From positions 124,001 to 188,000 of the forward strand of contig NZ_FZNQ01000001.1 in NCBI RefSeq assembly GCF_900188065.1: a DNA stretch of 64,000 nucleotides, given 5' to 3'. The notes under the pieces were generated by a model. It was given only the letters and a program-made list of their open reading frames with translations, searched no databases and was not told the DNA's origin. Position 1 is the stretch's first letter, and each line of letters opens with the position of its first letter. The position numbers and the translations under genes were made by a program. This document shows, piece after piece, positions 8,449 to 59,906 of this stretch. The stretch comes from Halorubrum vacuolatum. GTDB taxonomy: Archaea; Halobacteriota; Halobacteria; Halobacteriales; Haloferacaceae.

Positions 8449-10125
8449 TCACCGGTTCGGCGTATATTCGCCGAACTCCTCCCGGAGGACGTCACAGATC
8501 TCCTGTACCGTCGCGTACGCCTTGACGGCCTCGATGATCGGTGGAAGGAGGTTCTCGTCGCCGGTCGCGGCCGAACGGATCGCCGCGAGGGCGGCGTCCA
8601 CCGCCTCGCTATCCCGGTCGGCTTTGACGGCGGCTAGTCGGTCGCGCTGGGCGGCCTCCTGTGCGGGATCTACCTCCTCTATGTCCATCGCCGGTTCCTC
8701 ATCGACGGTGTGCTCGTTGACGCCGACGATGATCCGCTCACCCGCTTCGATCTCGCGCTGGCGTTCGAAGGCGACGTCCTGTATCTGCCGTTGGACCCAC
8801 TGACTCTCGACGGCCGCCAACGCCCCGTCGCGGCGGTCGATCTCCTCGATGATCTCGAACGCCTCCGCCTCGATGTCGTCCGTGAGGCTCTCGACGTAAT
8901 ACGAGCCCGCGAGCGGGTCCATCGTGTCCGCCGCACCCGACTCGTGGGCGAGGATCTGCTGGGTGCGCAACGCGGTACGAACGGACTGCTCGGTGGGTAA
9001 CGCGAGCGCCTCGTCCTTGCCGTTGGTGTGGAGGCTCTGGGTGCCGCCGAGGACCGCCGCGAGCGCCTGATAGGCGACCCGAACGACGTTGTTTTCGATC
9101 TGTTGGGCCGTGAGCGTCGAGCCCCCGGTCTGGGTGTGGAACTTGAGCTGTTTCGATTTGGGGTTCCCGGCGTCGAACCGTTCGTCCATAATCTGTGCCC
9201 ACATCCGCCGGGCCGCACGGAACTTCGCCGCCTCCTCCAGGATGTTGTTGTGTGCATTGAAAAAGAAGGAGAGCTGTGGAGCGAAGGCGTCGACGTCGAG
9301 GCCGGCGTCGAGGGCCGCTTCGACGTATTCGATCCCGTTCGCGAGCGTGAACGCGACCTCCTGAGCCGCCGTCGAACCCGCCTCACGGATGTGATACCCC
9401 GAGATGGAGATCGTGTTGAAGCTGGGTACCTCGGCCGCACAGAACGCGAAGATGTCGGTGATGAGCCGCATCGACGGCTCCGGCGGGTAGATGTAGAGGT
9501 TGCGGGCGATGTACTCTTTCATAATATCGTTCTGGATCGTCCCGCGCAACTCCTCGCGGTCGACGCCCTGTTCGTCGCCCATGGCGACGTACATCGCGAG
9601 CAACACGGCGGCGGGCGCGTTGATCGTCATCGACGTCGAGACGGAATCGAGCGGAATCCCGTCGAAGACCGTCTCGAAGTCGTCGAGCGTGTCGATGGCG
9701 ACGCCCGAGCGTCCCACCTCGCCCTCGGCCATCGGGGCGTCGGAGTCATAGCCCATCTGGGTGGGGAGGTCGAACGCCATCGAGAGCCCCGAGGAGCCCT
9801 GATCGATCAGATACTGAAACCGCTCGTTCGTCTCCCTTGCGGTCCCCATCCCCGCGTACTGCCGCATCGTCCAGAGTCGCCCGCGGTGCATCGTCGAGTA
9901 GACGCCTCGCGTGTAGGGCTCCTCGCCCGGGAAGCCGACGTCCTCACGGTAGTCGTGATCGGCGAGGTCCGCCGGCGTATACAGGGGGGAAACGGTCCGG
10001 CCGCCGGTGTCCGTGGTGAACGTCTCGGCACGCTCCCCGAACCGATCGACGGTGGGGGCGTAGGTCTCCTCCTTCCACGACGCACGCGCCTCGCGGATCC
10101 GCGCCAGTTCCTCGGGATCGAACAT
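8449..10125 (-). CDS. methylmalonyl-CoA mutase, large (catalytic) subunit
   Basis: A 558-residue protein from the ATG at 10125. It is the substrate-binding TIM-barrel part of the coenzyme-B12 mutase, without the C-terminal B12-binding domain, which in archaea is a separate small subunit. Motifs include [54 protein letters not shown] and the [15 protein letters not shown] region. It interconverts (R)-methylmalonyl-CoA and succinyl-CoA for propionyl-CoA or odd-chain and branched-chain breakdown. The start choice is supported by a TATA-like CACTTAAGCC on the minus strand (core 10151-10156), about 29 nt upstream, implying a leaderless mRNA. The small subunit and MeaB chaperone are not in this window. 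Confidence 0.95.
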
Positions 10126-10150
10126 CACTGATCCGGTTGGCCGAGCGAGG

Positions 10151-10156
10151 CTTAAG
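10151..10156 (-). promoter_or_regulatory. TATA box for methylmalonyl-CoA mutase gene
   Basis: CTTAAG at 10151-10156 lies about 29 nt upstream of the ATG at 10125, the usual distance for leaderless haloarchaeal promoters. A separate AT-rich patch further on (about 10219-10270, including TCAATTAAATG) faces the giant gene pair and is the best candidate for its plus-strand promoter. Confidence 0.45.
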
Positions 10157-10354
10157 TGTGGAGGTCGCGGGGGGATACGGAAGCGACGGCCCAGGGTCGG
10201 TTCGACGGTTGCCCATAGAATTAAGTGGTTAGTCAATTAAATGAAAAAGTGTAAAGTAAACAACAATCGGTGTTCTCCGAACGGCAGGTGAGGTAATAGG
10301 TCCGCGGCGGTGAACCGGTGTCTGTCCACCGGAGATGCCGCCCATGGACCACCA

Positions 10355-13300
10355 ATGTCACGGCTTGCGTTACAATCGATCGGCGTCGACGGCGAGGTAC
10401 AGCCACGTTCCGAATATCCATCCCTGGCGAACGGCATTCACCTTCGATGGGCCTTCCCACCCCACCACGGGTTCCCACCCGGCGGATACTACCTGTTGAG
10501 ACGGGGCCATCGAGAGCCCGGCGCCACCGACGCGTTGCTCTCGGCGGCGCTCGATCACGACCCGGAAGACCCGCTCGCGGCCGCCGAGACGTCCGAGGGA
10601 CATCGGTTCGAGTTCGAAGATCACGCCCGCATCGAGACCGTCACCGACGACCAGAACGCCGTCGGGCTCTCGATAAGCGGCGTCGAGCCGTTTCGGATCG
10701 ACGTTCCCGACCCGGCCTTCCGCGTCGATGTCTCGGTCGGGACCGAGGTGCTCCGCGATAGCGTCACCGTCCGGGCGTTCACCGACGGGCGGGTCGTCGA
10801 CGAAGCGACGACGAAGGGCGGGACGGTCTCGCTCGCGGGGGATCGGATCGACGCGATCGACTGTGTCGGCGCCCATCCGAAAGTCGATCCCGTCTTCGTC
10901 TCCGAGATCGCGGCGTATCTGGTGACGGAGAACCTGCGGGGGAGATGGCAACTGCTCCACCGGACGCCGATCCGACTGCCGGTCGCACACGACGACTACG
11001 GCGACGACGACGCGCCCGCCACCATCGAGGCGGCACGCCGGCTCGCGACCGATCGGATCGCGTACGGTGACCCCGCACGGCTTACGGCGGACCCCGATCC
11101 GGAGCCGGGCCCCGGAACGGTGACCGTCACAGCGGGGTCGCCGTACGTCTTCGCGCCGGGTCTCCGGTCCGATGCAAACGTGGTCGGCAGGAACCTCCAC
11201 GTTCACGGCGACGACACCGCCTACGGGATCGCAGCCATCGGCGCCGCCACAGCGGGGGGCGCACGCCTCGTCCTCAACCGGCCGTATCGCGGACAGAGCG
11301 GGGCCAACCGGGCATACGAGGTTCGCAACGACGAGTTCGCCGCGCTCCACGATACGCTGTCGGTCCTCGTGGACGGGAACGGCGGCGGCGGGAGCGGCGG
11401 TCCGCCGGTCGGGGGAATGGGCAGCCGGACGATGCCCGCATTCGAGGACCCGGGCGGGGTGGCCTATCGCAACGGTGACCCGTCGACCATCTACGGGGCG
11501 GGGGTGGACTGGGCGTCCGAAATGGCTGGCTCCCGGATCCGCTTCGCGACCGGGGCCGTTTCGGGGATGGCGGCCGTACACGGTCGACCACTCCTCTTCG
11601 GCGCCGAAACCGGGCTGGACGAGTCGTTCATCGGCGACCACGTCCGCATCGGGGCGGAACGGGAGCTGTATCGGATCGTGGATCTCACCCACTACGACAT
11701 CCCGGAGGCATCCTTCGAGATCTGTCTGCTCGATCGACCGGTGAGCGGCCCGCACTACGGCGACACCGTCGCCTGTGTCACGTTCTCGTCGGTGACACAC
11801 CGGATCGAGTCCGTCGACCCGGCTCAGAGCACCCTCCAACTCGAACACGACGCGCTGGGACTCCGTGACGGGCTCCCGCGAGGATATCTGGTCCATCCGG
11901 ATGCGCCCGACGGCAGCCACGGATCGATCCCCCTTCAAAACCCGCTCGACACCGTGCTGACGGCGGCGACCGATCCCGCCGCGGCACAGGCGCTCGGGCT
12001 CTACTGGGTCGACGACGCCGTCGACCCGAACGGGAGCTATGATTACCTGATCGTCGCCGATCACGGCGAGGTGATCCCCTCGACCGGCGTCGGTGCGGGG
12101 ATGGTGATCAACGAGCTCGTCTCCTCGATGACGACGCCGAGGCTCGACTGGTACGTGGCGTTCGACGTCGGCGGGGGTGACGAATCGGCGCTCCCGTCGC
12201 CGGCGGATCCACGGGTCTTTTCGCTACCGGCGACGGCGGAAACCGAGAACACCGTCGGCCTCCGCTGGGCGATGGCGGACGACTCCGAGGGCGCGAGGAG
12301 CGATGCGGCAGCGACACCCATCAAATACCACCTGTGGCGGTGGGAGGGAGATAACGGGGCGGACGTGCCGGCGGAACTCGACGCGTACGACCCGATCACG
12401 GCGGCGTCCGCCGACGAGTTCCTCGATGGGGCGATGCCGATCCTCGCGACGAACCCGGACGATTCCCCGGCCCTGACGCCCGAGGATTGGCCCGACGAGC
12501 GCATGCACGCAATCGAAACCGGGCTGGCCGACGGCTGGTACAGTTACCGAGTGGTCGGCGTCGACGTCTTCGGCCGGTTCAGCGAGCGGAGCGATCCCGC
12601 GACGTGGTCGACGAACGACCCGATCGAATCGGCCGATTCACCACACGCACAGCAGGCGATCGAGGTGGTGAGCGACCGTTCGCCGCCCCCGCCGACAGCG
12701 ATCGAGGCGGCCGCGCTCGACCCGGCGGCTTACAGCGAGGACCTTCTGGGTCTCGACGCCGACGAGATCCCACCGAACCCGGACATCAGACAGGACGCGA
12801 CCTACCGTTCGTGGCGGGCGGCGAACCCGTCGGAGACCGGACTCCGGGTTCGGTGGTGCTGGCCGGAGGAACACGCCGACATCGCGCCTGACGTCGCCGA
12901 GTTCGACGTGTACGTCGCGCCCGGACGGCGAAACACGCACGTCGGCGAGATCACCGGGGTGACCGCGACAACGACCGGCTTCGAAGTGACCGTCGACGTC
13001 GGCCTCGATGGCGCCGAGCCGGCGGTGTTCGCGGGGACGACACTCGTCGTCGCCACGGCGGCGTTCCCGGTCGAGTCGGCAGTCGCGGTCGATGACGGGA
13101 TCGAACTGACGGTTCGACCACCTATCGAGCGGAACGGTGCGGCCACCGACGGCGGACAGAACATCACCGACGGCGGACAGAACATCACCGACGGCGGGCA
13201 GGCCGAATCCGTCGCGGATGCGCTCGTCACGGACGACGGGTTCGTGACGATGTTTCCGGCGGGTGATGTCGGCCCACTCGAGGTCTCGATCACGGAGCCC

Positions 13301-15328
13301 GAGGTGGGCGATCGGTGTTCGCTCGTCGTCCCGCCGGCGTACACCGAGGGAACCGTCACCGTCGACGCCGCCGAGACGACGGAGATCGATGGCACCACCG
13401 GAACCGTCGTGACGGGCCACCGCACCGAGTGGAACGAGTCGCTCGAGGGGCGGAACTTCAGAACCGTCGACGACGACGTGGCCTACGAGGTCGCAGGCGT
13501 CGAGGGACCGACGGAGCTCGTGCTCGATCGGCAGGTCGAGTCCACGACGCCCGGATCGTATCTCCCATATCGGATCGCGCATCCGCTCTGGACGGACGGG
13601 ACCGACCCGGGCGCGTGGGGGGATCCGGTCGGGACGATCGGGTTCGACGACGCGGACGCGACGATCGGTACGGACGGGCTCGGAGGAATCGACCCGGGAA
13701 CGACCGTCTATGAGACGATCGTTTCCGCGCCGGAGAGCGACGAGGGCGAGGCGTTCGCCCCGTCGCTTTCGGTCCCGACGGTGTATGCGGACGTGACCGT
13801 CACGGCATCCGACGGGTCGGGGAACGAGAGCCCGGTCGACGGCACCGCGACCGTCGCGCGCGTTCATCGCGAGACGCCGGATTCCCCGAGCGGGCCGACG
13901 ATCGAGGTGGACTTCGAGCGGGCCACCCACCCGGATTACGACGGCGAGTCGGCGTACACCGTGAGGTGGGAGCCGCTGGACGGCGGCGACGCCTACGGCT
14001 ATCACGTGTTCCGCGCGCTGGATGAGACGCTGTTCGCGACCGACCTGGAACGTCGGGTCGCCGCCGAGGATGAGGATGGTGATCTGGGCGACGGGCTTCC
14101 GCTCGACGCCGACGACGAGCGGTTCTTCCCGCCGGCGCTTCGCGGGTCGGACGGGTCGGACGAGCGTGACACGATCGTCGAAGCGTTGCAAACGTTCGAT
14201 GCGCACGCCAAAACGATCGATAAAGCGGAGGACGACGAGGCGGCGGCCGACGCGAGGGCGGCCGCGATGGCGGACTACCGCGCCCTTCGCGAGGCGGTCG
14301 ATCCGTCGACGGATGACGCAACCGAAAGCGAGGCGACCGAAGGCACCGACGCCGAGGCGTTACGGCCGGCGATCCTCGCGACGCTCGCGGCGCTGCCCGG
14401 CAACGAGACCGCCTTCTCCCAGCGAACCGACTCGGCGCTCGTCCCGAGCGAACACGACGACCGCGTCGGCCCCGACGGCGACGCGGCGTACGACCCCGAC
14501 GACGACCTGTGTGCGTGGGTCGATCACTTCGACGGCGTCGCCCGGAACTGCTATCTCTACCGGGTCGGCACCGTCGACGACGCCGGCAACCGCAGCGACG
14601 CCCGCGAGGACGACGGGACCCCGATGAGCTACCCGACGATGCCGGTGAAATCGCCCGCGGTGGTCCCCCCGCCGACGCCGCGGATCGTCGACGTCGGCGC
14701 GGGCCACCCGGATGAGGACGTCGACGGCGACCGGATGATCACGCTCCGGATCGAGGGCGTGACCGGCCCCGCCGTCGATCACCTCCTCGTGTATCGCACG
14801 GAGGACGCGGCGGCGGCCGACGACCTCCGTTCGATGGCGGGGCCGGAGACGGTCGTCCCCGAGGAGGACGGGATCATCGCCGAGGACGACACGCATCTCC
14901 TGTGGGTCGAGACGGACGTGGAGCCGTTCACGACGACGTACTATCGGGTCGTCGCCGTGAGCGAGGCCGGCATCCACACGAAGCCGACGCCGCCCGTCTC
15001 GGGGCAGGCGTTCGACCGATCGCCGCCGGAGACGCCGTCGTGGGAGACCGAGGATCCAGCCGTCGACGACGATGGCGACGTGACCCTCGCGTGGACACCC
15101 GCGGGCGACGCGGGCGACCTGATGTATCAGGTGCAACGCCGCCCAGACGACTCGGATGACGACGAACCGGATGACGACGGCCCCGACTGGCGAGCGATCG
15201 GGCCGTGGACCCGGGACACGGCGGTCACGGATAGGGGACGGGACCCGGATGGAACGTACGACTATCGCCTGCGTGTCAAGGGGGCGACCGGCGGGATGAA
15301 CGATGACCTTGAGCTGAAGGGGGTGTGA
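10355..15328 (+). CDS. giant FN3-like / virion-like beta-module protein A, function unknown
   Basis: A protein of 1,657 residues from the ATG at 10355; an in-frame start 15 codons upstream is less likely. There is no signal peptide, Tat motif, transmembrane helix or sorting tail, so it looks cytoplasmic or released by a non-classical route. The N-terminus (residues about 1-55) contains NGIHLRWAFPPHHGFPPGGY. Residues about 254-329, 368-466 and 1008-1076 are related beta modules with the pattern 'L.GR.....DD.AY.V..V.....L.LDR.Y.G....Y.I', like modules in phage virion proteins. Fibronectin-III-like segments, each with Y-x-Y/W-x-V-x-x-V/D-x-x-G, occur at about 629-751, 826-864, 1199-1419, 1461-1566 and 1576-1657. 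Three copies of TDGGQNI occur near residue 931. The next giant gene overlaps its stop, so the two form an operon. It is not a recognised named family. Confidence 0.85.
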   Translation: MSRLALQSIGVDGEVQPRSEYPSLANGIHLRWAFPPHHGFPPGGYYLLRRGHREPGATDALLSAALDHDPEDPLAAAETSEGHRFEFEDHARIETVTDDQNAVGLSISGVEPFRIDVPDPAFRVDVSVGTEVLRDSVTVRAFTDGRVVDEATTKGGTVSLAGDRIDAIDCVGAHPKVDPVFVSEIAAYLVTENLRGRWQLLHRTPIRLPVAHDDYGDDDAPATIEAARRLATDRIAYGDPARLTADPDPEPGPGTVTVTAGSPYVFAPGLRSDANVVGRNLHVHGDDTAYGIAAIGAATAGGARLVLNRPYRGQSGANRAYEVRNDEFAALHDTLSVLVDGNGGGGSGGPPVGGMGSRTMPAFEDPGGVAYRNGDPSTIYGAGVDWASEMAGSRIRFATGAVSGMAAVHGRPLLFGAETGLDESFIGDHVRIGAERELYRIVDLTHYDIPEASFEICLLDRPVSGPHYGDTVACVTFSSVTHRIESVDPAQSTLQLEHDALGLRDGLPRGYLVHPDAPDGSHGSIPLQNPLDTVLTAATDPAAAQALGLYWVDDAVDPNGSYDYLIVADHGEVIPSTGVGAGMVINELVSSMTTPRLDWYVAFDVGGGDESALPSPADPRVFSLPATAETENTVGLRWAMADDSEGARSDAAATPIKYHLWRWEGDNGADVPAELDAYDPITAASADEFLDGAMPILATNPDDSPALTPEDWPDERMHAIETGLADGWYSYRVVGVDVFGRFSERSDPATWSTNDPIESADSPHAQQAIEVVSDRSPPPPTAIEAAALDPAAYSEDLLGLDADEIPPNPDIRQDATYRSWRAANPSETGLRVRWCWPEEHADIAPDVAEFDVYVAPGRRNTHVGEITGVTATTTGFEVTVDVGLDGAEPAVFAGTTLVVATAAFPVESAVAVDDGIELTVRPPIERNGAATDGGQNITDGGQNITDGGQAESVADALVTDDGFVTMFPAGDVGPLEVSITEPEVGDRCSLVVPPAYTEGTVTVDAAETTEIDGTTGTVVTGHRTEWNESLEGRNFRTVDDDVAYEVAGVEGPTELVLDRQVESTTPGSYLPYRIAHPLWTDGTDPGAWGDPVGTIGFDDADATIGTDGLGGIDPGTTVYETIVSAPESDEGEAFAPSLSVPTVYADVTVTASDGSGNESPVDGTATVARVHRETPDSPSGPTIEVDFERATHPDYDGESAYTVRWEPLDGGDAYGYHVFRALDETLFATDLERRVAAEDEDGDLGDGLPLDADDERFFPPALRGSDGSDERDTIVEALQTFDAHAKTIDKAEDDEAAADARAAAMADYRALREAVDPSTDDATESEATEGTDAEALRPAILATLAALPGNETAFSQRTDSALVPSEHDDRVGPDGDAAYDPDDDLCAWVDHFDGVARNCYLYRVGTVDDAGNRSDAREDDGTPMSYPTMPVKSPAVVPPPTPRIVDVGAGHPDEDVDGDRMITLRIEGVTGPAVDHLLVYRTEDAAAADDLRSMAGPETVVPEEDGIIAEDDTHLLWVETDVEPFTTTYYRVVAVSEAGIHTKPTPPVSGQAFDRSPPETPSWETEDPAVDDDGDVTLAWTPAGDAGDLMYQVQRRPDDSDDDEPDDDGPDWRAIGPWTRDTAVTDRGRDPDGTYDYRLRVKGATGGMNDDLELKGV
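13145..13201 (+). repeat. in-frame 21-bp tandem repeat in giant gene A
   Basis: Two identical 21-bp units (13145-13165 and 13166-13186) and a partial third (to 13201) encode the heptapeptide TDGGQNI repeatedly. The repeat keeps the reading frame and sits between two beta modules, where it would act as a flexible linker of variable length. Confidence 0.85.
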
Positions 15329-15330
15329 TC

Positions 15331-18300
15331 ATGGGAGCGACACAGACGACGGCCGAACCGGTGGACGAATGGATCGAAGATCAGCTGCAGGATATGACCG
15401 ACGTGCCGGCGGACACGTTGCCGGAGTTTCTCGGAAACGTCGCCATCGACGACGCCGACGTCTCCGATGACGTCGCGAGCGCGACCCTCGTGATCGACGG
15501 CTACCCGAGCCTCTCGGTTCCGGGAAGCGCCGGCGTCGAGTTCTTCCTCGGCGAGCCGGAGGTTTCCACCGCCGAGATCGACGTCTCGCTCGTTCTCGAA
15601 ACCGAGTGGGCACTCGCCATCGAGGGGATCGAACTCACCGCCCGCGTCGACAACGGGGTGTTGCGCCCCGCCCCGGCGGATGACGGCACCCGCGCCGATC
15701 ACGTCGAGTTCACGACCGAAGTCGACATCACCCTCGATCACACCTGGGAGTTCGGGATCGAGGGGTTCGAGGGCGTGGACATGACGCCGGCCGAGATCGC
15801 CAAAACGGGGATCCTCATCGAGGCCAGCGACATCGTCCTCGACGTCTCGCCGACGGAGCTGTCCCCGGCGATCGCCGACCACGACGAGTTCGACGACGCA
15901 TACGTCGACGAGGGATTTGTCGGCCTATTCATCGGCGACGCGAGCGTCTCGTTCCCGGAGTCGTGGCCGCTCCCGGCGGAGCTCACGCTACAGGGAGCCA
16001 CTATCGGCTCCGGCGGCTTCTCCGGCGTCATCGCCTACGAGCCGGCCGATCTCACGTTCGACGACACGACCAACGAATACACCGGCGAGGCGGCCGCGAC
16101 CCTCGGGGACTTCTCGTTCGGGATCGACGCCGTGCAGGTCGAGTTCGTCCAGACGGCGCTCTCGACGTGTTCCGTCTCGGGTGAACTCTTCTTGCCGTAC
16201 GTCGACCAGCGCGTTGCCGTCGATCTCGGCTTCGATATGGAGGGCAGGCTCGCGGTCGAACTGACCGACCTCATCGACGCCGACGAGCCAACCGACGGGC
16301 CGTCCGGCGATCTCGTCACGATCGAAGTGGCGGAGGCGTTCGCGTTGGACGTCGACGGCTTCGGAATCGTCGTCAGTGCCGAGACGTTCGCACTCTCCGT
16401 CTCGGGGACGGTTCGTCCGCTCTTCGACGCGGTCGATCTCCCCGACGTCGAGGTGGACGACCTCACGATCAACGACGACGGAACGGTCGATTACGACGAC
16501 AGCTGGATCGACGTGCCGGATCAGGGCGCGACGGAGCTCGAGGGGATCGAACTCGAGGTGTCGAAGTTCGCCGTCGGGACCCGCGACGACGGCTGGCGCT
16601 ACCTCGCGTTCAGCGGGGCCATCAGCATCGTCGAGGGGATCCCCGCCGGCGCATCGGCCGACGGACTCCGCGTCGCGTGGGACCCGAGCGGCGAGAACGA
16701 CCCGACGGTCAGCTTCGATGGGATCGGCATCGAGTTCACGATCCCGGACACCCTCGCGTTCAAGGGGACCGTCGCCTACGACGGCGAGAACGGGAAGTAC
16801 TACGGCGACATCGACCTCGACCTGATCGCGTTGGACACCTCGATCTCGGCGACGCTCATCGTCGGCGAGGAAAAGGACGCGAGCGGACAATGGTTCACGT
16901 ATCTCGGTGTCTCCATCGACGCCTCGCTGCCGGTCGGGATCCCGCTGTTCTCGACCGGACTCTCAATCTACGGGATGGGGGCGCTCTACGCGCACAACAT
17001 GGAGCCGGACCGTGGAGATAAGGAGTGGTACGCGTTGAGCGGCGAGAAAGAGGAGAGCTGGTATCACGCGGGCAACGAGCCCGGCGTCGACGACCTCAAC
17101 AATCAGTGGGCTGCCAAACGCGGCGGCTTCGGGTTCGGCGCCGGGGTCAATATCGGAACGAGCTCGGACAACGGCTTCGCGCTCACGAGCGACCTCCTCC
17201 TGGTGATCGCGTTCCCCGGCCCCGTGATCATGTTGGAGGGACGTGCCGATTTACTCTCACCCGGGGAGGAGATCGACTCGGAGGGGAGCCTGCGGACGCT
17301 CGCGGTGCTCGATGGCGACGCCGGCGATCTGACCTTCGGGATCGACGCCCAATACACCAAGGCGTCCGAGAACACCACCTTGATCGACATTCGGGCCGGA
17401 GTTGAGGCGTACTACGACTTCACGGACCCGAGCGCCTGGTATCTCAACCTCGGAAGACGCGACCCCGAGGACGACCGGGTTCGTGCGGAGCTGTTGGTCT
17501 TCTCCGCGGACGGCTACTTCATGCTCAACGCGGACCGCGTCGCGACCGGCGCGCGCGTCGGCTACGGGGAGGACTTCTCCTTCGGGCCGCTCGCGGTCGA
17601 TTTCGAGGCGTTCATCGAGGGGCACGTGCTGGTGAGCTGGCAGCCGACCCACTTCTCCGGGGCGGTCGAGCTATACGGCGCCATCGAACTGTCGGCGTTC
17701 GGGATCGGCGCCTCGATCACCGCGAGCGCCGCGCTCGCCGCGGAGGCGATCGATCCGTTCCACGTCCACGGAGAGGTGAGCGTCGAGCTGGGCACGCCGT
17801 GGCCACTCCCGGATCCCGAAGCGACCGTCTCGCTCGAATGGGGCCCGACCCCGGAACCGCCGGAGGTGCCGGCACCGCTTTCGGGCGTCGCGCTGGGACA
17901 CGAGCGGGTGACGACGCGCTGGCCGTTGCCGCGCGCCGGACAGGTCGATGAGGTCGGAGACGGCGCGTACACGGAGGCCCTGCTCGAACCGGACTACGCC
18001 ACCGCGGACGCGGGAGGCGAGCGGCTGCTCGGGTACGACGGCGACCTCCCGTCGCCACCGGAAGATGACGACAAGGGTCCGGCTGATCCGCCGCGCGTCC
18101 CCCCGGACGTCCGGCCGGAGCTCACCTTCACCACGGGCGTCGTCGACGACGGCGACGTCGGCGTGAACGCCTCGACGAGCGACGCGTGGACGGTCATCGG
18201 CGACCCGGAGGACGGCGGCCCCGTCGAGGCCAGATATCTGCTTCAGGACGTGTCGCTGCAGCGATGGAGCGAGTCGGAAGATTCGTACGTCGACGAGGGA

Positions 18301-21300
18301 CCGGTCTACGGGTCGTGGGCACCGTTGCCCGACACCCGGATCGGCGCTGGCGGCGCGCCGAGCGACGACGGCACCCCGCCGGTCGCGAACACGAAGCTCC
18401 GCCTCTGGTCGGTCAACCCGTACGACTACGGGCGTGATACGGGCGGCGCGTGGGAGGAAGGGATCGACCGGCTTCTCGGCTCCTATCCCTGCTACGGCGA
18501 CGGGCGGTGTTTCCCGCTTGCGGGCACCGCCATCGGCGAGGAACTCACCCGCGAGCTGGAGGGCGAGGAGTTCGACGGCGAGCGGATCACCCACGAGGAC
18601 GACGGATGGCCGCAGTTCCTCCGGGAGGTCGACGAACTCGACGCGCCCCCGGAGGTATCCCCGGCCGAAACCGAGGCGGGTTTCATCGAGGCGCTGCGCT
18701 ATCTCGGGCCGAACAGGAAACACGATCCCGAGGACCTGACGGAAGTCGTCGTTGGCCTCGACGGATACAGGCGGTCGGTCGAGCTGACCCTCGTCGTCAG
18801 CCGAGGAAACACCCGCCTGTCGGCGACGGCGCTCGGGTATGAGGGCGAGAGAAAGGGAAGCACCCCGATCGATACCCGTGATATCCGGTCGGCCCCCGAA
18901 TTTCTCACCGGCTCGGTGGAGGAGGAGGCCTTCCGGGAGGTCGAGGTCGATCCGCCGACGTCGGCTCCCTTCGAGCGACGGACGGTGACGTTCACCGCGG
19001 ACGGGGGGATCAGCCACGTCCTGATCCGCTCGACCGGGGCGTTTGGCATCGTCGAGGTGTGTGAGGCGACGGTCCCGATCGATGCGCTGGGTGCCGACGG
19101 GGTAGAGGGTCCCGCTCACGTCCGCGATGAACTCGTGCGCTGGTCCGAGGAGCCGACCGTGCTCGAACCAAACGAGCGCTATCGGCTCGTGATCGACACC
19201 GTCGCCGAGGCCCGGGGGATCGACGGGGAGCCGCTTTCGGAGTTCGAACACCGCTGGCCCGACGGGGACGGGACGATGACCGAAATGGCGTACTTCGAGA
19301 CCACCGGCCCGCCGGCGCTCGCCGACGTGAGCCCGCCGTTCGGGGCCGACGACCAGGAGGAGGGTGGCTCGGACGCGTTCGGGACGCTCGAACGATACGT
19401 CGAGTCCACGGTCCCGGAAAGCGTCGTCGCCGACGGCGAACGGCCGAGCGTCCCCCGGCCGGTGTATCGCGGCTACGACGTCGGCGTCCGGTTCGCCGAG
19501 GCATACGTGGAGTCGCTGTACGCCATGGCGCGGCGTGACCTCCGATTGCAGCTGTACGACGAGGACGACCGGCCGGTTCGGGACGTCGACGGACGGCTCG
19601 GAACGGCGCGAAACCCGTGGGCAAAGGCGGGGACACACGCGCTCGAACGCCACGATCGGACGTGGCTCTCGCGCGTCGCGGAGGCCTGCGGCGGCATCGA
19701 GGAGGAGACGCTCCCCTACGAGGACGTCCTCGCGGACGACGACCCTCGATGCGTGCTCGATCCGGACACGACCTACGAGGCGCGACTCGTCCCGGCGCTC
19801 ATCCGGGAACCGTTCGATACCGACGGGGACCGCTGGAGCGGCGGCGACGGAGAAGCCATGGTGACACACGTCGGTCACGACGGTGCGTCGGGCGAAAGCG
19901 CCTCGGTCGTCTCCGAGGATACAGACGCCGACGAGGCCGTCGTGACGCTCGAAGCGCTTGAGGAGGGCGACCTCGACGACATCACCCCGGAAAGCGACAC
20001 CGTTCGGTTCCGGGGCGACAAACGGCGTGCGGACGGGACGTACGTCATCACGGCCGTCGACGAGGACGACGATGCGACGGTGACGCTCGACGGCGTACCC
20101 GACCTCGCGGACGACGACCGGACGTGGCGGGTGGCTCCGACCGGCCACCTTCGGATCGACGACGGTGACGGAACCGTCGACGTGACCATATCCCTCGAGT
20201 CGGCTCCGGGATCGACGGCCCCCACTACATGGGACGACTACGTGCTTCGCACGAACGTCCGGTTCACGGACGCGGCCGAGGGGGTCGCCGGCGCGGTGGT
20301 ACGGTATGACCCCGACGCTGGGACCGGCTATCGGTTCGAGATCGACGCGGACGACGACGAATACCGGCTGATTCGGATCGACGCGGACGCCTCGGAGACG
20401 TTGAAGACCGAGCCGTCCCCGTCGATCGAGGCGGGGATGGACGCCGATATCCGGATGCAGGTCATCGGCGGCACGATCGACGTCTTCGTCGACGACGAGC
20501 CGACGATGTCCGTCATCGAGGCGGAGCCGCTTCCCGCGGGCACGGTCGGGATCCATGCGATGGACGTCCCGAGGATCGACGTCGCCGAGGTGTTCGTCGA
20601 GGACTTCCGAACCGGCGGTGCGAGTCCCGTCGCCTACCGGTTCCCGTTCACCACGTCGCGGTTTTCGAACTTCGTCCACCAGCTCCACAGCTTTCCGGAC
20701 ACCGCGTGGACCGCCGATGGCGGGGCCCTCGCCGCGATGCTCGACGGGGACGACGACGTGCCGGACGTGACGGCGGCGGCAACGTCGCTGCCCGCGGACG
20801 ATCCGGAGCCACCCGGGGGGATGGAGGCGCGGGCGTACGACGCCGTGGAGGAGGCGCTCGCGCCCGGGGTGACGCCACCCGTCGACGGCCTCGATGCGAC
20901 GTGGCTGACGGCGGACGACGGGCCGGTCGGCCTGCTCGTCCGGTCCCCGGAGCCGATAGATTGGGACCGGACCACCGGAGAACTCGGCTGTGCGGCCGAG
21001 CCGCTGTCAGCGCCACAGCCGCCGGAGGTGACGAAGGTTACCGAGGTCCGGTTCGAGGGCGAAAACGACGGGGGGACGGGGTCGACCGACGGCTCCGTGG
21101 AGGTACTCTTGGACCGGCGGATAACGCCGGAGGGGTACGTCCTCGAACGCCGGCTGCCCGGTGGTCGGGGCTTTGCGCCCGACCCCATGGGTGACGGGTT
21201 CGAGGAGCGGTTCCCCGAGACGTTCGAGGGCGACGTCTATCGACAGATCCCCGGCCCCGAACCCGGCGAACTGCCCGATATCCCGTTCCCACAGGACCTG

Positions 21301-23280
21301 ATCGAGTGGGACGGGGACGAGCCGCTCGTGCCGGGGCGCGAGGATCCGATACTCGAGGAGGAGGAAAGCGAAGAGCAGTTGACCGAGGTCGAACCGATCG
21401 ACGACGACCGGATATCCGGGCTCGCGGCGCGCGTGTCCGAGACGTTCGACCGGTACGACATCGACGTGTCGGTTTCGGAGGACGATCCGCTGACGGCGCT
21501 GGAGGCCACCACCGTCGACGACGAGCTCGTGGCCGACCTCGATCTCAGCGGCGAGGAGTACGAGCTGCTCGAACGGCAGGCCGCCCGCATGGCCGACCGC
21601 ACCACGATCGATGCCACGTCGGGGACGACGGTCAGGACGGTGGACGGCGCGGAGCGAACGGTGGACGGCGCGGAGCGAACCGTCGACCTTGAGCGCCTCG
21701 CGGCCGTCACGTCGGAGGGGGCCACAGCCGGCGATCCGGACGCGGAGTGGTTCATCGATGAGGACGGTCTGTCGGCGGAGACCGAGGGGTGGACCGGTTT
21801 CGTCCGCCCCGCGGGGACGACCCCGACCGTCTGGGAGACGACGGTCGCGCTCGGATCGTCGGCCACCGCCGGACTGCTGTTCCGCGTGCGCGATGAGACC
21901 CATTACCTCGCCGCGGTGCTCTCCACCGGCGACGAACGTGTGTCGCTGCGACGCCGAGACGGCGACGGCGCCGAGACGGTACGGGAGGTGCCGCTCCCGG
22001 ATCGAGACGGTGCCGACGAGGCCGATGAGAACGGTGCCGACGAGGACGGGACACGCGCTTCCGAATACACCCTTCGCGTTCGTGCGGACAGCACGACCCT
22101 CTGGGTGAGCGTCGACGACGTCCCGCTTTTCGGCGTCGAAGACACGTTCCTCGAGGGCGACGCCGCGGGCGTGTTCACGGACGGGGACGACGCGACGTTC
22201 ACGTCGCTGTCGGCCAACGACGACGCCGACGTCGGGCGGCTGTTGAAGGACGCCTTCACGGCGGACGACCCGGTCGATTCGGAGTACGTCTCCGGCGAGG
22301 AGACGGTCGGCGACTGGCGGGTGGTCGATGAACCGCCCTACACGATCCGGCACTCGATGTGGCGCACCCGCGATGGGACCTTGGAGCAGGTGAGCAACCT
22401 CTACGGCTTCGTCGGCAACCGGTATCGCGAGCCCGGAACCTACGCCGTGACCGGCGACGAGAACTGGAGCGATTACCGGGTCGCCGTTCGGCTTCGATCC
22501 GAGGACGACGACGCCATCGGCGTCATCGTCAGATACCGCGGCGACGGGGAGTACTACCGCTTCTCGATGGATCACGAGCGGAAATATCGCCGACTCGTCC
22601 GACGCTCCGGCGGGACGACCACGGTGCTCTGGGAGGACGACGAACGCTACGAGCTCGGCCGCGAGTACCTCCTCACGATCGACTGTGTCGGCGACCGGAT
22701 CGTCGGCCATCTCGACGGCGAACGGCTGTTTTCGGTGACCGATCCCGTGATCGACACCGGGAAGATCGGCGTCTATTGCCGGGCGAACGTGGGCGCCCGG
22801 TTCGAGGACGTACGCGTCACCGCCCCCGGGGGCGGATGGGTCCCATACCACGTCTTCGAGGCCGACGTCGCGTTCCCCGCGGGATCCCGGATCCGGGTCG
22901 CCGACGATCCGCCGGCGGACGACGCGCTTCCGGTCGGCGTCTACGGCCGTGAACGAAACGGCGCCGACGCCGGTCAGCTCCCGGAGACGCCGACCGACTT
23001 CCGGATCCGCGACCCGACCGGTGCGATCGGCCATCGTCGCGTGTTCCTCCCGGAGGAGGCGTATGAGCCGTGTGCCGACGTGCCCGTCCTCCGCAACACG
23101 GACGGGACGGGACTGTTCCTCCTCACGGCGGGGCTCCCGAGCGACACGACGGCGACCCGGCTCTCGATGACCTATCGCAGGGCGCTCGAGGACGACGTGC
23201 TGACGCAGCACGGAAGCGACGAACCGGAGACGACCGGCGTCACCGTTCGTGTCCCAGCGGACGGCGACGAGGGGGAGTGA
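15331..23280 (+). CDS. giant beta-rich protein B with three LamG-like modules, function unknown
   Basis: A protein of 2,649 residues from the ATG at 15331, which has a GGGGGTG ribosome-binding site just upstream; an in-frame GTG at 15325 overlaps the stop of gene A. No signal peptide or membrane anchor is visible. Residues about 1-850 form a continuous series of beta-strand repeats. They alternate hydrophobic and acidic residues, with sheets such as GGFGFGAGVNIGTSSDNGFA and SADGYFMLNADRVATGARVG. These recall the long beta-repeat DUF6603 proteins of bacteria, though this is by eye. Around residue 1050 there is a two-cysteine motif, SYPCYGDGRCFPL. Three concanavalin/LamG-like modules occur at about 1636-1764, 2135-2297 and 2304-2500, each with a 'GV..R......Y.F.....D..Y.L.R' core. 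A heptad repeat DGAERTV sits near residue 2105. Carbohydrate or surface binding is plausible but unproven. Confidence 0.85.
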   Translation: MGATQTTAEPVDEWIEDQLQDMTDVPADTLPEFLGNVAIDDADVSDDVASATLVIDGYPSLSVPGSAGVEFFLGEPEVSTAEIDVSLVLETEWALAIEGIELTARVDNGVLRPAPADDGTRADHVEFTTEVDITLDHTWEFGIEGFEGVDMTPAEIAKTGILIEASDIVLDVSPTELSPAIADHDEFDDAYVDEGFVGLFIGDASVSFPESWPLPAELTLQGATIGSGGFSGVIAYEPADLTFDDTTNEYTGEAAATLGDFSFGIDAVQVEFVQTALSTCSVSGELFLPYVDQRVAVDLGFDMEGRLAVELTDLIDADEPTDGPSGDLVTIEVAEAFALDVDGFGIVVSAETFALSVSGTVRPLFDAVDLPDVEVDDLTINDDGTVDYDDSWIDVPDQGATELEGIELEVSKFAVGTRDDGWRYLAFSGAISIVEGIPAGASADGLRVAWDPSGENDPTVSFDGIGIEFTIPDTLAFKGTVAYDGENGKYYGDIDLDLIALDTSISATLIVGEEKDASGQWFTYLGVSIDASLPVGIPLFSTGLSIYGMGALYAHNMEPDRGDKEWYALSGEKEESWYHAGNEPGVDDLNNQWAAKRGGFGFGAGVNIGTSSDNGFALTSDLLLVIAFPGPVIMLEGRADLLSPGEEIDSEGSLRTLAVLDGDAGDLTFGIDAQYTKASENTTLIDIRAGVEAYYDFTDPSAWYLNLGRRDPEDDRVRAELLVFSADGYFMLNADRVATGARVGYGEDFSFGPLAVDFEAFIEGHVLVSWQPTHFSGAVELYGAIELSAFGIGASITASAALAAEAIDPFHVHGEVSVELGTPWPLPDPEATVSLEWGPTPEPPEVPAPLSGVALGHERVTTRWPLPRAGQVDEVGDGAYTEALLEPDYATADAGGERLLGYDGDLPSPPEDDDKGPADPPRVPPDVRPELTFTTGVVDDGDVGVNASTSDAWTVIGDPEDGGPVEARYLLQDVSLQRWSESEDSYVDEGPVYGSWAPLPDTRIGAGGAPSDDGTPPVANTKLRLWSVNPYDYGRDTGGAWEEGIDRLLGSYPCYGDGRCFPLAGTAIGEELTRELEGEEFDGERITHEDDGWPQFLREVDELDAPPEVSPAETEAGFIEALRYLGPNRKHDPEDLTEVVVGLDGYRRSVELTLVVSRGNTRLSATALGYEGERKGSTPIDTRDIRSAPEFLTGSVEEEAFREVEVDPPTSAPFERRTVTFTADGGISHVLIRSTGAFGIVEVCEATVPIDALGADGVEGPAHVRDELVRWSEEPTVLEPNERYRLVIDTVAEARGIDGEPLSEFEHRWPDGDGTMTEMAYFETTGPPALADVSPPFGADDQEEGGSDAFGTLERYVESTVPESVVADGERPSVPRPVYRGYDVGVRFAEAYVESLYAMARRDLRLQLYDEDDRPVRDVDGRLGTARNPWAKAGTHALERHDRTWLSRVAEACGGIEEETLPYEDVLADDDPRCVLDPDTTYEARLVPALIREPFDTDGDRWSGGDGEAMVTHVGHDGASGESASVVSEDTDADEAVVTLEALEEGDLDDITPESDTVRFRGDKRRADGTYVITAVDEDDDATVTLDGVPDLADDDRTWRVAPTGHLRIDDGDGTVDVTISLESAPGSTAPTTWDDYVLRTNVRFTDAAEGVAGAVVRYDPDAGTGYRFEIDADDDEYRLIRIDADASETLKTEPSPSIEAGMDADIRMQVIGGTIDVFVDDEPTMSVIEAEPLPAGTVGIHAMDVPRIDVAEVFVEDFRTGGASPVAYRFPFTTSRFSNFVHQLHSFPDTAWTADGGALAAMLDGDDDVPDVTAAATSLPADDPEPPGGMEARAYDAVEEALAPGVTPPVDGLDATWLTADDGPVGLLVRSPEPIDWDRTTGELGCAAEPLSAPQPPEVTKVTEVRFEGENDGGTGSTDGSVEVLLDRRITPEGYVLERRLPGGRGFAPDPMGDGFEERFPETFEGDVYRQIPGPEPGELPDIPFPQDLIEWDGDEPLVPGREDPILEEEESEEQLTEVEPIDDDRISGLAARVSETFDRYDIDVSVSEDDPLTALEATTVDDELVADLDLSGEEYELLERQAARMADRTTIDATSGTTVRTVDGAERTVDGAERTVDLERLAAVTSEGATAGDPDAEWFIDEDGLSAETEGWTGFVRPAGTTPTVWETTVALGSSATAGLLFRVRDETHYLAAVLSTGDERVSLRRRDGDGAETVREVPLPDRDGADEADENGADEDGTRASEYTLRVRADSTTLWVSVDDVPLFGVEDTFLEGDAAGVFTDGDDATFTSLSANDDADVGRLLKDAFTADDPVDSEYVSGEETVGDWRVVDEPPYTIRHSMWRTRDGTLEQVSNLYGFVGNRYREPGTYAVTGDENWSDYRVAVRLRSEDDDAIGVIVRYRGDGEYYRFSMDHERKYRRLVRRSGGTTTVLWEDDERYELGREYLLTIDCVGDRIVGHLDGERLFSVTDPVIDTGKIGVYCRANVGARFEDVRVTAPGGGWVPYHVFEADVAFPAGSRIRVADDPPADDALPVGVYGRERNGADAGQLPETPTDFRIRDPTGAIGHRRVFLPEEAYEPCADVPVLRNTDGTGLFLLTAGLPSDTTATRLSMTYRRALEDDVLTQHGSDEPETTGVTVRVPADGDEGE
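21640..21681 (+). repeat. in-frame 21-bp tandem duplication in giant gene B
   Basis: Two 21-bp units (21640-21660 and 21661-21681) differ by a single base at the end and encode VDGAERT twice. They lie in a linker between the coiled acidic segment and the second LamG-like module. Confidence 0.85.
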
Positions 23281-23368: not shown

Positions 23369-24034
23369 ATGAACGTCCTTCCCGATCACACCGCACGGTT
23401 TCTGGCGGCCACGGCCCCGGACCACACCCCGGTTCAAGCGGAGATGGCCGACCTCGCCGAGGAGTGGGACTTTCCGATCATCGGCGCGGAGGCGGGGGCG
23501 GTGCTCCGTCTGCTTGCCCGACTGACCGACGCCGAGCGCGTCTTCGAGTTCGGCTCCGGGTTCGGCTACTCCGCGACGTGGTTCCTCCGCGGCGGGGCCG
23601 AATCCGTCGTCTGTACCGAGTTCGACGAGGAGGAGGCCGAACGGGGCGTCACGTTCGCGACCGAGTACGGCTACGACGACGCCGTCACCTTCGAGATCGG
23701 CGACGCGATGGGGACGATCGAGCGCTACGACGGTCCCTTCGACATCGCCCTGATCGATCACCAGAAGTCCCGATACGTCGACGCGTTCGAGGCCGTGAGG
23801 CCGAAGCTCCGATCCGGCGGTGTCGTCATCGCGGACAACATCGCTTCCGGTCCGATCGACTTCGACGCCCTCGTGCGCCACGTCACCGACGGCGACCCCC
23901 TCCCTTCGGTCGATGACGACGCCCAAACCCACGGGATCGGGAGCTACGTCGATCACGTGACCGATGACCCAGCCGTGGAGACGGCGATCCTGCCGGTCGG
24001 GTCCGGGATCGCGGTGTCGACGGTCCGCGGGTGA
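23369..24034 (+). CDS. SAM-dependent O-methyltransferase-like protein
   Basis: A 221-residue class I methyltransferase. After a helical N-terminus (FPIIGAEAGAVLRLLARLTD), motif I is RVFEFGSGFGYSATWFL, the SAM-binding glycine loop. An acidic residue follows at the end of strand 2 (VVCTEFDEEEA), then the GDAMGTIERYDGPFDIALIDH strand-4 region and GGVVIADNIASG. The arrangement matches the O-methyltransferase family 3 (caffeoyl-CoA/catechol type), where the Asp of ALIDH and DN of IADN bind metal and substrate. The substrate is unknown. It follows the giant gene pair by 88 nt on the same strand, but its conserved sequence and the position before gatC suggest an independent gene. Confidence 0.85.
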   Translation: MNVLPDHTARFLAATAPDHTPVQAEMADLAEEWDFPIIGAEAGAVLRLLARLTDAERVFEFGSGFGYSATWFLRGGAESVVCTEFDEEEAERGVTFATEYGYDDAVTFEIGDAMGTIERYDGPFDIALIDHQKSRYVDAFEAVRPKLRSGGVVIADNIASGPIDFDALVRHVTDGDPLPSVDDDAQTHGIGSYVDHVTDDPAVETAILPVGSGIAVSTVRG

Positions 24035-45929: not shown

Positions 45930-45982
45930 ATAATATCACACAAACAGCATATTTATGTGTGTTACGGTACAATACGTAGTTG
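45930..45982. promoter_or_regulatory. divergent promoter/operator between the RHH-like gene and tnpB
   Basis: This 53-bp AT-rich gap contains CACACAAA and TTTATGTGTG halves of an imperfect inverted repeat (about 45938-45962), with CATATTTATG in the centre serving as a TATA-like element for tnpB, about 27 nt before its ATG. ATATTATATG on the minus strand could serve the small gene. Placement of the palindrome over both start sites fits a ribbon-helix-helix operator. Confidence 0.45.
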
Positions 45983-47257
45983 ATGAAGCGGGCCAACACG
46001 TTCGACGTGATTCCGCAGTCCTCAGAGGACGAGGAGTTGCTTCGACGCCTGTTGGACGCTTCTGCCGCTCTCTGGAACGAAATCAACTACGAGCGCCGCG
46101 AACACTACGAAGACCCAGACCAAGACGTATGGGAGATCAGCGAGTATCGCGGTCGCTATGGCGGAACACTCGGTGCATCCACGGTTCAGCAAATCGAACG
46201 CAAGAACCGGGAAGCGTGGAGGTCGTTCTTTAGCCTCAAAAAGAAGGGAGAAGCCAACGGCAAACCCGGATTCTGGGGGAACGCAGAGGAAGGGCGAGAA
46301 CTCCGCACGTACATCCGCAACACGTCGTACTCTGTTAAGTGGGGCAAATACTCACGCCTCGAAATTCTCGTTGGTCAAGACCTGAAAGACGAGTACGGGT
46401 TGGGACACCGCGAACGGCTCCGGCTCGAAGTCTGGGGCGAACCTAACTGGAAAGAGTACGACAAGCAGGGACGGTTAGAGTTGTGCTGGGACGAGCAAGC
46501 ACGATCATTCAGGGCCTTTCAGCCAGTCACAATCGACACTTCTCGGCTGGCACACCCACTGGCTTCGGAAGAAGCCGCTCTGGACCTCGGTGCAAACAAT
46601 CTCGTCGCTTGCACAACCATAACCGGCCAGCAATACCTGTACGAAGGACGCGATATGTTCGAGCGATTCCGCGAAACGACGCGGGAGATCGCCCGGTTGC
46701 AGTCGCTCTTGGAGGACGGTCGGTACAGCAGCCACCGGATACGTTCACTATACCGACGCCGGACGCGCCGACGCGACCACGCCCAAGACGCGCTCGCCCG
46801 CGACCTCATCGAACGGTTGCACAGCGAGGGCATTTCTACGGTGTACGTGGGGGCGTTAACGGACGTACTCGACACGCACTGGTCGGTCGAATCGAACGCC
46901 AAAACGCACAACTTCTGGGCGTTCCGGCAGTTCATCGATCGACTCGCGTGTACCGCCGAGGAGTACGGAATCTCGGTAGAGGTTCGGTCGGAAGCGTGGA
47001 CAAGCCAAGAGTGCCCGCAGTGTGGGTCCACGGAGCGAACAACGCGCCACCGCGACACGCTGACGTGTCCGTGTGGTTTCGAGGGACACGCGGATCTTAC
47101 GGCATCCGAAACGTTCCTGAGACGGCAGACAGACGTAGCACGGTCGATGGCACGGCCTGTGCGCCTCAAGTGGAACGACCACGAGTGGTCAGAGTCACCA
47201 CGCTCTTGTTCCAACGAGGAGCGCACGAACCCGCAAGTTGCCTCCGTGGGCCGGTAA
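45983..47257 (+). CDS. tnpB: IS1341-type TnpB (RNA-guided nuclease family) with altered RuvC-II
   Basis: A 424-residue protein from the ATG at 45983. The N-terminal helical part is followed by a RuvC-like nuclease. RuvC-I is [20 protein letters not shown] with Asp201. RuvC-III is [20 protein letters not shown] with Asp371. Between them is a zinc finger, [18 protein letters not shown] then LTCPCGFEG. At the RuvC-II strand ([20 protein letters not shown]), where ISDra2 TnpB has its catalytic Glu, there is Gly290. A Glu at 337 in [17 protein letters not shown] lies 47 residues downstream and may supply the missing acid; rearranged RuvC-II glutamates have been reported in TnpB surveys. If it does not, the nuclease would be inactive and the protein could act as an RNA-guided binder. 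The gene is full-length and not frameshifted. Confidence 0.9.
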
Positions 47258-59751: not shown

Positions 59752-59906
59752 GCGGCAACACTCGTCACCCGGGGTCTTCGGTGTTACCATCTCCGGTATT
59801 TTTGACGATGCGATCCGCTCATCGCCCGATAGTGTACTCATACGGAGCTACAAACGGGATCGAGCCCTGTTGACCTCCTTCGTCAATGCTTTTGTCTCGG
59901 GGCACA

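What the first reader, a model, noticed from the sequence alone, without database searches (positions are those of the whole stretch)
10355..23280. Two giant overlapping genes of unknown function without secretion signals
Genes A (1,657 residues) and B (2,649 residues) take up 13 kb, one fifth of the window. They are intact, overlap by a few bases and keep strong coding bias, so they are under selection. Neither has a signal peptide, Tat motif, membrane helix or PGF-CTERM tail. Protein A is a string of FN3-like and virion-like beta modules; protein B is a long beta-repeat protein with LamG-like modules at the end. This is the composition of fibres, adhesins, or cargo of phage-like particles, yet no export route is visible. 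Maintenance of such a costly operon in one strain suggests a defined accessory system. What is seen: size, overlap, modules. The role is inference.
Basis: partly seen in the sequence, partly recalled or inferred. Interest (0 to 1): 0.8.

Follow-up and report, generated by a model that had tools for sequence, protein, structure and literature searches.

The report
Two-giant-gene lipase-linked mobile cassette
Two huge neighbouring genes in a salt-loving archaeon form a rare, horizontally moving cassette also found in other archaea and in bacteria, where a gene for a fat-splitting type of enzyme usually sits between the two giants, pointing to an undescribed lipid-acting complex whose function is still unproven.

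Summary
The two giant genes are real, intact and under purifying selection (dN/dS about 0.36-0.43). They are separated by 2 nt rather than overlapping. They are inserted between a methylmalonyl-CoA mutase and an O-methyltransferase gene that are adjacent in four relatives. The order A-B recurs in Halorubrum sp. 48-1-W and Halobellus captivus. In Halogranum rubrum, in another haloarchaeal family (G859) and on plasmids of the fungal endosymbiont Mycetohabitans, a phospholipase-D-superfamily gene sits between A and B. In two Acidobacteriota that slot holds unrelated proteins with SGNH-hydrolase blocks. So the conserved unit is 'giant A - lipolytic-type enzyme - giant B', and the window carries an enzyme-less form. 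A has no named family beyond a C-terminal FN3 domain. B has DUF6603 inside an amphipathic beta-rich N-terminal third, and CBM66-like jelly rolls at its C-terminus. No export signal is visible in any full-length member checked. No phage or viral relatives were found, and the window genome lacks contractile sheath and tube genes, so the phage-particle/eCIS-cargo idea is not supported here. Best guess: a cytoplasmically made lipid-handling, target-binding complex, armed with a lipase in most relatives. The mechanism is unproven (0.33); the cassette itself is solid.

The parts
10355..15328 (+). Gene A, 1,657 aa giant (open frame from GTG 10310); N-terminal signature GIHLRWAF..GFP..GYYLLRR; no named family
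15331..23280 (+). Gene B, 2,649 aa giant (alternative start GTG 15325)
16588..17883 (+). DUF6603 (PF20248) match in B, residues 422-853 counted from GTG 15325
   Evidence: 47.1 bits, cut-off 27
15418..17910 (+). N-terminal third of B (about residues 30-860), amphipathic beta-rich region
   Evidence: beta-moment z 3.6 and 4.9 in the window protein, 2.9-5.3 in Halogranum and Mycetohabitans; AF2 strands at pLDDT 55-80 for residues 30-430 only
20200..20610 (+). CBM66-like jelly-roll module in B (boundaries approximate)
   Evidence: profile match to levanase CBM66, E=2e-5
21760..22250 (+). Possible further jelly-roll module in B (boundaries approximate)
   Evidence: weak profile match to beta-fructofuranosidase, E=0.003
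22312..22854 (+). CBM66-like jelly-roll module near the end of B (boundaries approximate)
   Evidence: profile match to levanase CBM66, E=1e-3
14950..15290 (+). C-terminal FN3-like domain of A (boundaries approximate)
   Evidence: profile match to pikachurin and titin FN3, E=2e-4 and 5e-3
8449..10236 (-). Methylmalonyl-CoA mutase gene, left flank of the insertion
   Evidence: PF01642; adjacent to the right flank in four relatives
23369..24034 (+). O-methyltransferase gene, right flank of the insertion
   Evidence: PF01596

Best explanation
Shown: A and B are the two giant proteins of a rare, horizontally moving cassette of archaea and bacteria with the order 'A - lipolytic-type enzyme - B'. 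The middle slot is filled by a PLD-superfamily protein or by a protein with SGNH-hydrolase blocks. The window carries an enzyme-less form, most simply explained by loss. Inferred: the proteins are made and assembled in the cytoplasm, since no export signal is visible. The amphipathic beta region of B forms a lipid- or membrane-facing scaffold; the CBM66-like modules of B and the FN3 region of A bind glycans or partner proteins; the middle enzyme cleaves or remodels phospholipid or ester bonds. The complex most likely acts on other cells after release by lysis, less likely inside the producer. In the window lineage the giants act without the enzyme or with one encoded elsewhere.
For: Same order A-B in Halorubrum 48-1-W and Halobellus; A-PLD-B in Halogranum, in G859 and on Mycetohabitans plasmids; A-SGNH-B in two Acidobacteriota; a more distant A-like - PLD - B-like locus. 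PLD proteins keep two HxK motifs, the second canonical; the SGNH proteins keep GDSW, GGND and DExH. Two unrelated lipolytic folds in one slot point to a lipid- or ester-directed function. Empty site in four relatives and a different site in Halobellus show mobility; dN/dS below 0.45 shows function. Amphipathic beta signal confined to the N-terminal third of B and the CBM66-like module, in archaea and bacteria alike. No hydrophobic export signal in any full-length member checked.
Against: No biochemistry; activity is inferred from motifs. The window locus itself has no enzyme, and none of this PLD type exists elsewhere in that genome. The first HxK motif of the PLD proteins lacks the usual Asp, so activity or substrate may differ. 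SGNH assignment rests on motifs; Pfam gave no match. AF2 models were poor, and fold matches are at noise level. Physical association of the proteins is not shown.
Confidence: 0.33

Rival explanations
1. A and B are surface or matrix proteins (adhesins) exported by an unrecognised route, and the middle enzyme trims surface lipids or glycolipids.
For: FN3 in A and CBM66-like modules in B are typical of extracellular proteins; strong acidity and repeat-like beta content.
Against: No signal peptide, Tat motif, anchor or membrane helix in archaeal or bacterial members (motif reading by eye, no dedicated predictor). No dedicated exporter gene next to the cassette in the window, Halobellus, Halogranum or Mycetohabitans.
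Confidence: 0.25
2. An intracellular lipid- or polymer-handling scaffold: the giants coat or carry lipid, and the enzyme remodels it inside the producer.
For: No export signal; amphipathic beta-rich B; lipolytic-type enzyme; some of the weak fold matches are lipid carriers (ApoB100, MTP, LptD).
Against: Those fold matches are at noise level (best Z 7.3, model pLDDT 46). Glycan-binding-type modules and sporadic mobile distribution fit housekeeping lipid storage badly.
Confidence: 0.15
3. Tail-fibre, accessory or cargo proteins of a contractile injection system or phage-like particle.
For: Giant beta-rich proteins without signal peptides; CIS tube or sheath genes in four other carriers (Halorubrum 48-1-W, Halobellus captivus, two Acidobacteriota).
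Against: The window genome, Halogranum and G859 have no tube or PF17482 sheath, and the window genome has no PF04984 sheath. In the carriers with CIS the cluster is not adjacent (about 60 kb and 160 kb away where on the same contig). 12% of haloarchaea have a CIS anyway (PMC11566945). No phage or viral homologues.
Confidence: 0.08
4. An anti-phage or plasmid-competition defence system using a PLD-type nuclease.
For: PLD proteins of relatives have weak similarity to DISARM DrmC; mobile context with toxin-antitoxin genes in Mycetohabitans.
Against: DrmC scores are far below the cut-off (22 against 133 bits) and confined to the HKD core; the best solved matches are phospholipases D; SGNH replacement does not fit a nuclease; A and B have no PADLOC match.
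Confidence: 0.07
5. A decaying remnant: after loss of the enzyme the giants in the window lineage have no function.
For: Enzyme absent from all three genomes of this type.
Against: Both frames intact over 13 kb, dN/dS about 0.4 between the three enzyme-less genomes, identical 2-nt spacing.
Confidence: 0.05

Closest known systems
DUF6603 family (Pfam PF20248) and the multi-giant-gene operons that carry it in haloarchaea, Streptomyces and Rhizobium
   Same: B contains the domain above its cut-off; several giant genes in a row; also on plasmids
   Different: Those operons start with the DUF6603 gene and continue with other giants (lamin-tail, BGTF surface domains); they lack A and the enzyme slot. 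Outside DUF6603 no similarity to A or B was found; the link to B itself is weak (22% identity, E 2e-4; HH probability 60%).
PLD superfamily (phospholipase D, cardiolipin synthase, DrmC)
   Same: The middle gene of Halogranum, G859 and Mycetohabitans has PLDc_2 and the HKD core
   Different: Far below every named subfamily cut-off; the first HxK motif lacks Asp; lies between two giants; absent from the window
SGNH/GDSL hydrolases
   Same: The middle gene of two Acidobacteriota has the GDSW, GGND and DExH blocks
   Different: No Pfam or PDB sequence match
T6SS lipase effectors (Tle families) and other polymorphic lipase effectors
   Same: Different lipolytic folds in equivalent gene positions beside large partner proteins (from general knowledge, not tested)
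   Different: No VgrG, immunity gene or secretion apparatus beside the cassette
CBM66 (levanase carbohydrate-binding module)
   Same: Profile match of two stretches of B
   Different: No glycoside hydrolase found in B; ligand unknown

Membership tests
DUF6603 (PF20248) | Profile match above the curated cut-off | tested here: met
   B 47.1 bits against 27
DUF6603 multi-giant operon (G022/G055 type) | DUF6603 gene followed by the same set of giant partners | tested here: not met
   A and B share only DUF6603 with that operon
Contractile injection system (eCIS/T6SS) | Sheath and tube genes in the genome | tested here: not met
   PF04984, PF17482 and PF06841 absent from the window genome; the same families ring in other carriers
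Phage or prophage | Homologues in phage or viral records or PHROGs | tested here: not met
   A: none in viral contigs or phage records; A and B: none in PHROGs
Secreted or surface protein | Signal peptide, Tat motif, membrane helix or anchor | tested here: not met
   Hydropathy and termini of 13 proteins; no dedicated predictor was available
PLD superfamily (middle gene of relatives, not in the window) | Two HxKx4D motifs | tested here: inconclusive
   Second motif canonical; first keeps HxK but lacks Asp; PLDc_2 above cut-off
SGNH hydrolase (middle gene in Acidobacteriota) | GDSx, GxND and DxxH blocks, and a family profile match | tested here: inconclusive
   Blocks present and aligned in both proteins; no Pfam match
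DISARM DrmC or other defence family | Profile match above cut-off and DISARM partner genes | tested here: not met
   22 against 133 bits; A and B no PADLOC match
CBM66 module | Fold and ligand binding | tested here: inconclusive
   Sequence profile E 2e-5 and 1e-3; fold and ligand not tested

The most novel reading that the evidence does not exclude
A previously undescribed class of effector or lipid-handling complex, in which two signal-less giant beta-rich proteins carry interchangeable lipolytic enzymes (PLD or SGNH type), spread by horizontal transfer between haloarchaea, Acidobacteriota and a fungal endosymbiont and working independently of contractile injection systems.
Probability: 0.3. 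Interest if true: 0.82.

Novelty: categorically new. Interest (0 to 1): 0.62.

Why it matters
If right, it is a new kind of multi-protein system shared by archaea and bacteria, recognised by gene order, with an enzyme slot that swaps folds while keeping a lipolytic character. That pattern is usual for effector or remodelling systems and would give a first testable function to a group of unnamed giant DUF6603 proteins. The enzyme-less haloarchaeal form is a natural contrast between scaffold and enzyme.

Tried and rejected
Phage or virion origin: viral contigs, phage records and PHROGs negative. CIS cargo: sheath and tube absent from the own genome. Defence: only sub-threshold DrmC similarity of the relatives' PLD gene. 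AlphaFold of A 1-1097 (pLDDT 34) was unusable and was not searched; B 1-1077 (pLDDT 46) gave only noise-level fold matches (LptD, FimD, ApoB100, MTP), so no fold is claimed. Flanking repeats: none convincing at the cassette ends, so the insertion mechanism is unknown. Literature: no paper in the open library mentions DUF6603. The G022/G055 operons were first taken for the same system, but share only DUF6603 with B. G348 and G572 are distant: G348 shares the A signature and a B-like gene without enzyme; G572 has a PLD gene and a B-like gene (HH probability 96.5%) but its A-like gene is weak. Weak A-profile hits in many other genomes look like generic FN3 and are not counted. The SGNH protein has no relatives on plasmids. 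PLD relatives also occur without A and B in Streptomyces and Nonomuraea, so the PLD gene alone does not mark the cassette.

Full report
What is there. The window lies in a haloarchaeal genome (72 contigs, 98.35% complete; contig C39, 488 kb). Gene A (ATG 10355-15328, 1,657 aa) and gene B (ATG 15331-23280, 2,649 aa) are intact, highly acidic (pI 4.2 and 4.1) and coding-biased. With the starts suggested by homologues they are separated by 2 nt; the same spacing is seen in Halobellus and Halorubrum 48-1-W. dN/dS is 0.36-0.43.

It is an insertion. In four relatives (G002, G003, G005, G007) the flanking methylmalonyl-CoA mutase and O-methyltransferase genes lie side by side, divergent. In the window A and B, with short flanks, lie between them. 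No convincing terminal repeats were found. In Halobellus the pair sits between an M3- and an M29-peptidase gene, so the cassette has changed place between genomes.

Who has it. Among 170 genomes of the same family four carry A. In an even sample of 393 genomes of the phylum only the window genome and G859 match A strongly. Of 396 genomes of the phylum of the Acidobacteria MAG two match strongly. Named carriers are Halorubrum sp. 48-1-W, Halobellus captivus ZY8, Halogranum rubrum and an Acidobacteria gp7 MAG, with fragments from Desulfuromonadales and Pricia MAGs. On plasmids it was found only in Mycetohabitans, endosymbionts of the fungus Rhizopus. The A tree splits archaeal from bacterial members with full support.

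The middle gene. In Halogranum, G859 and Mycetohabitans a gene for a PLD-superfamily protein (509-544 aa) lies between A and B. Its second HxKx4D motif is canonical; the first keeps HxK but lacks the usual Asp. In two Acidobacteriota the slot instead holds a protein (in one genome two genes) with the three SGNH-hydrolase blocks GDSW, GGND and DExH. A more distant locus (G572) has the order A-like, PLD, B-like. The enzyme-less trio to which the window belongs groups next to PLD-bearing G859 in the A tree (84/85 support), while the B tree does not resolve this; loss of the enzyme is the simplest reading. No relative of this PLD type was found anywhere in the three enzyme-less genomes.

What the giants look like. 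A has no match in Pfam, NCBIfam, PHROGs or PADLOC. Its N-terminal signature GIHLRWAF..GFP..GYYLxRR is strongly conserved and is what the distant member G348 shares; its C-terminus matches FN3 domains. B has DUF6603 in a region (about residues 30-860) with significant beta-amphipathic periodicity in archaeal and bacterial members (z 2.9-5.3), not seen in most of the rest of the protein or in a control enzyme. Late in B, two or three stretches match CBM66 of levanase or a related jelly roll. Structure prediction from five sequences failed for A and was poor for B, and the fold matches are at noise level.

What it is not, as far as tested. No phage or viral relatives. No contractile sheath or tube in the window genome, and no tube or PF17482 sheath in Halogranum or G859; four other carriers have CIS genes, but not beside the cassette. 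In haloarchaea 12% of 350 genomes carry a CIS in any case (PMC11566945), so two closely related positives among five haloarchaeal carriers are no evidence of a link.

Reading. Shown: a rare, mobile, selected cassette of archaea and bacteria, with two giant proteins without export signals and an interchangeable lipolytic-type enzyme slot, empty in the window lineage. Inferred: a cytoplasmic complex that handles or attacks lipids and binds glycans, possibly acting on other cells after lysis. The two main rivals are surface proteins with an unknown export route and an intracellular lipid scaffold. No biochemical step has been shown, and the activity of either middle protein is inferred from motifs.

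Novelty. 'Categorically new' refers to the operon type: no family library, solved structure or open-access paper searched here describes it as a system. Several of its parts are known domains, and a description in subscription literature cannot be excluded.

Noticed in passing
L008/L025 (G022), L009/L026 (G055), L077 (Halalkalicoccus plasmid), L076 (Streptomyces plasmid), L078 (Rhizobium plasmid): A second, separate type of giant-gene operon that starts with a DUF6603 gene and ends with a protein bearing the motif LLGRQWQxGEFxGEDAGSP (often with a lamin-tail domain), widespread on haloarchaeal and actinobacterial plasmids and undescribed in the open literature searched.
   Followed up: partly
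L088 (Streptomyces sp. NBC_01724 plasmid): A DUF6603 gene lies within about 10 kb of a DUF2235 gene (T6SS Tle1-like phospholipase type, from general knowledge) and a PLD-like gene: another co-location of DUF6603 with lipolytic-type genes.
   Followed up: no
L086 (G463:C65:95500-115400) and G026:C11:135643-136601: Contractile-injection-system tube genes (and a sheath in G463) on the same contigs as the cassette but about 60 kb and 160 kb away.
   Followed up: partly
window 13144-13206: Three tandem 21-nt copies inside A, encoding repeats of about ITDGGQN, in a linker region that varies in length between homologues.
   Followed up: no
window 45980-47257: IS605-family OrfB/TnpB-type gene (PF01385, PF07282) in a stretch of lower GC.
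   Followed up: no
window 55003-57714 and 57718-59841 (minus strand): A GHL5 'hypothetical glycoside hydrolase' gene next to an alpha-amylase gene, a likely polysaccharide-processing pair.
   Followed up: no
L035, L036: On Mycetohabitans plasmids the cassette is surrounded by transposase or integrase genes and several toxin-antitoxin pairs.
   Followed up: no
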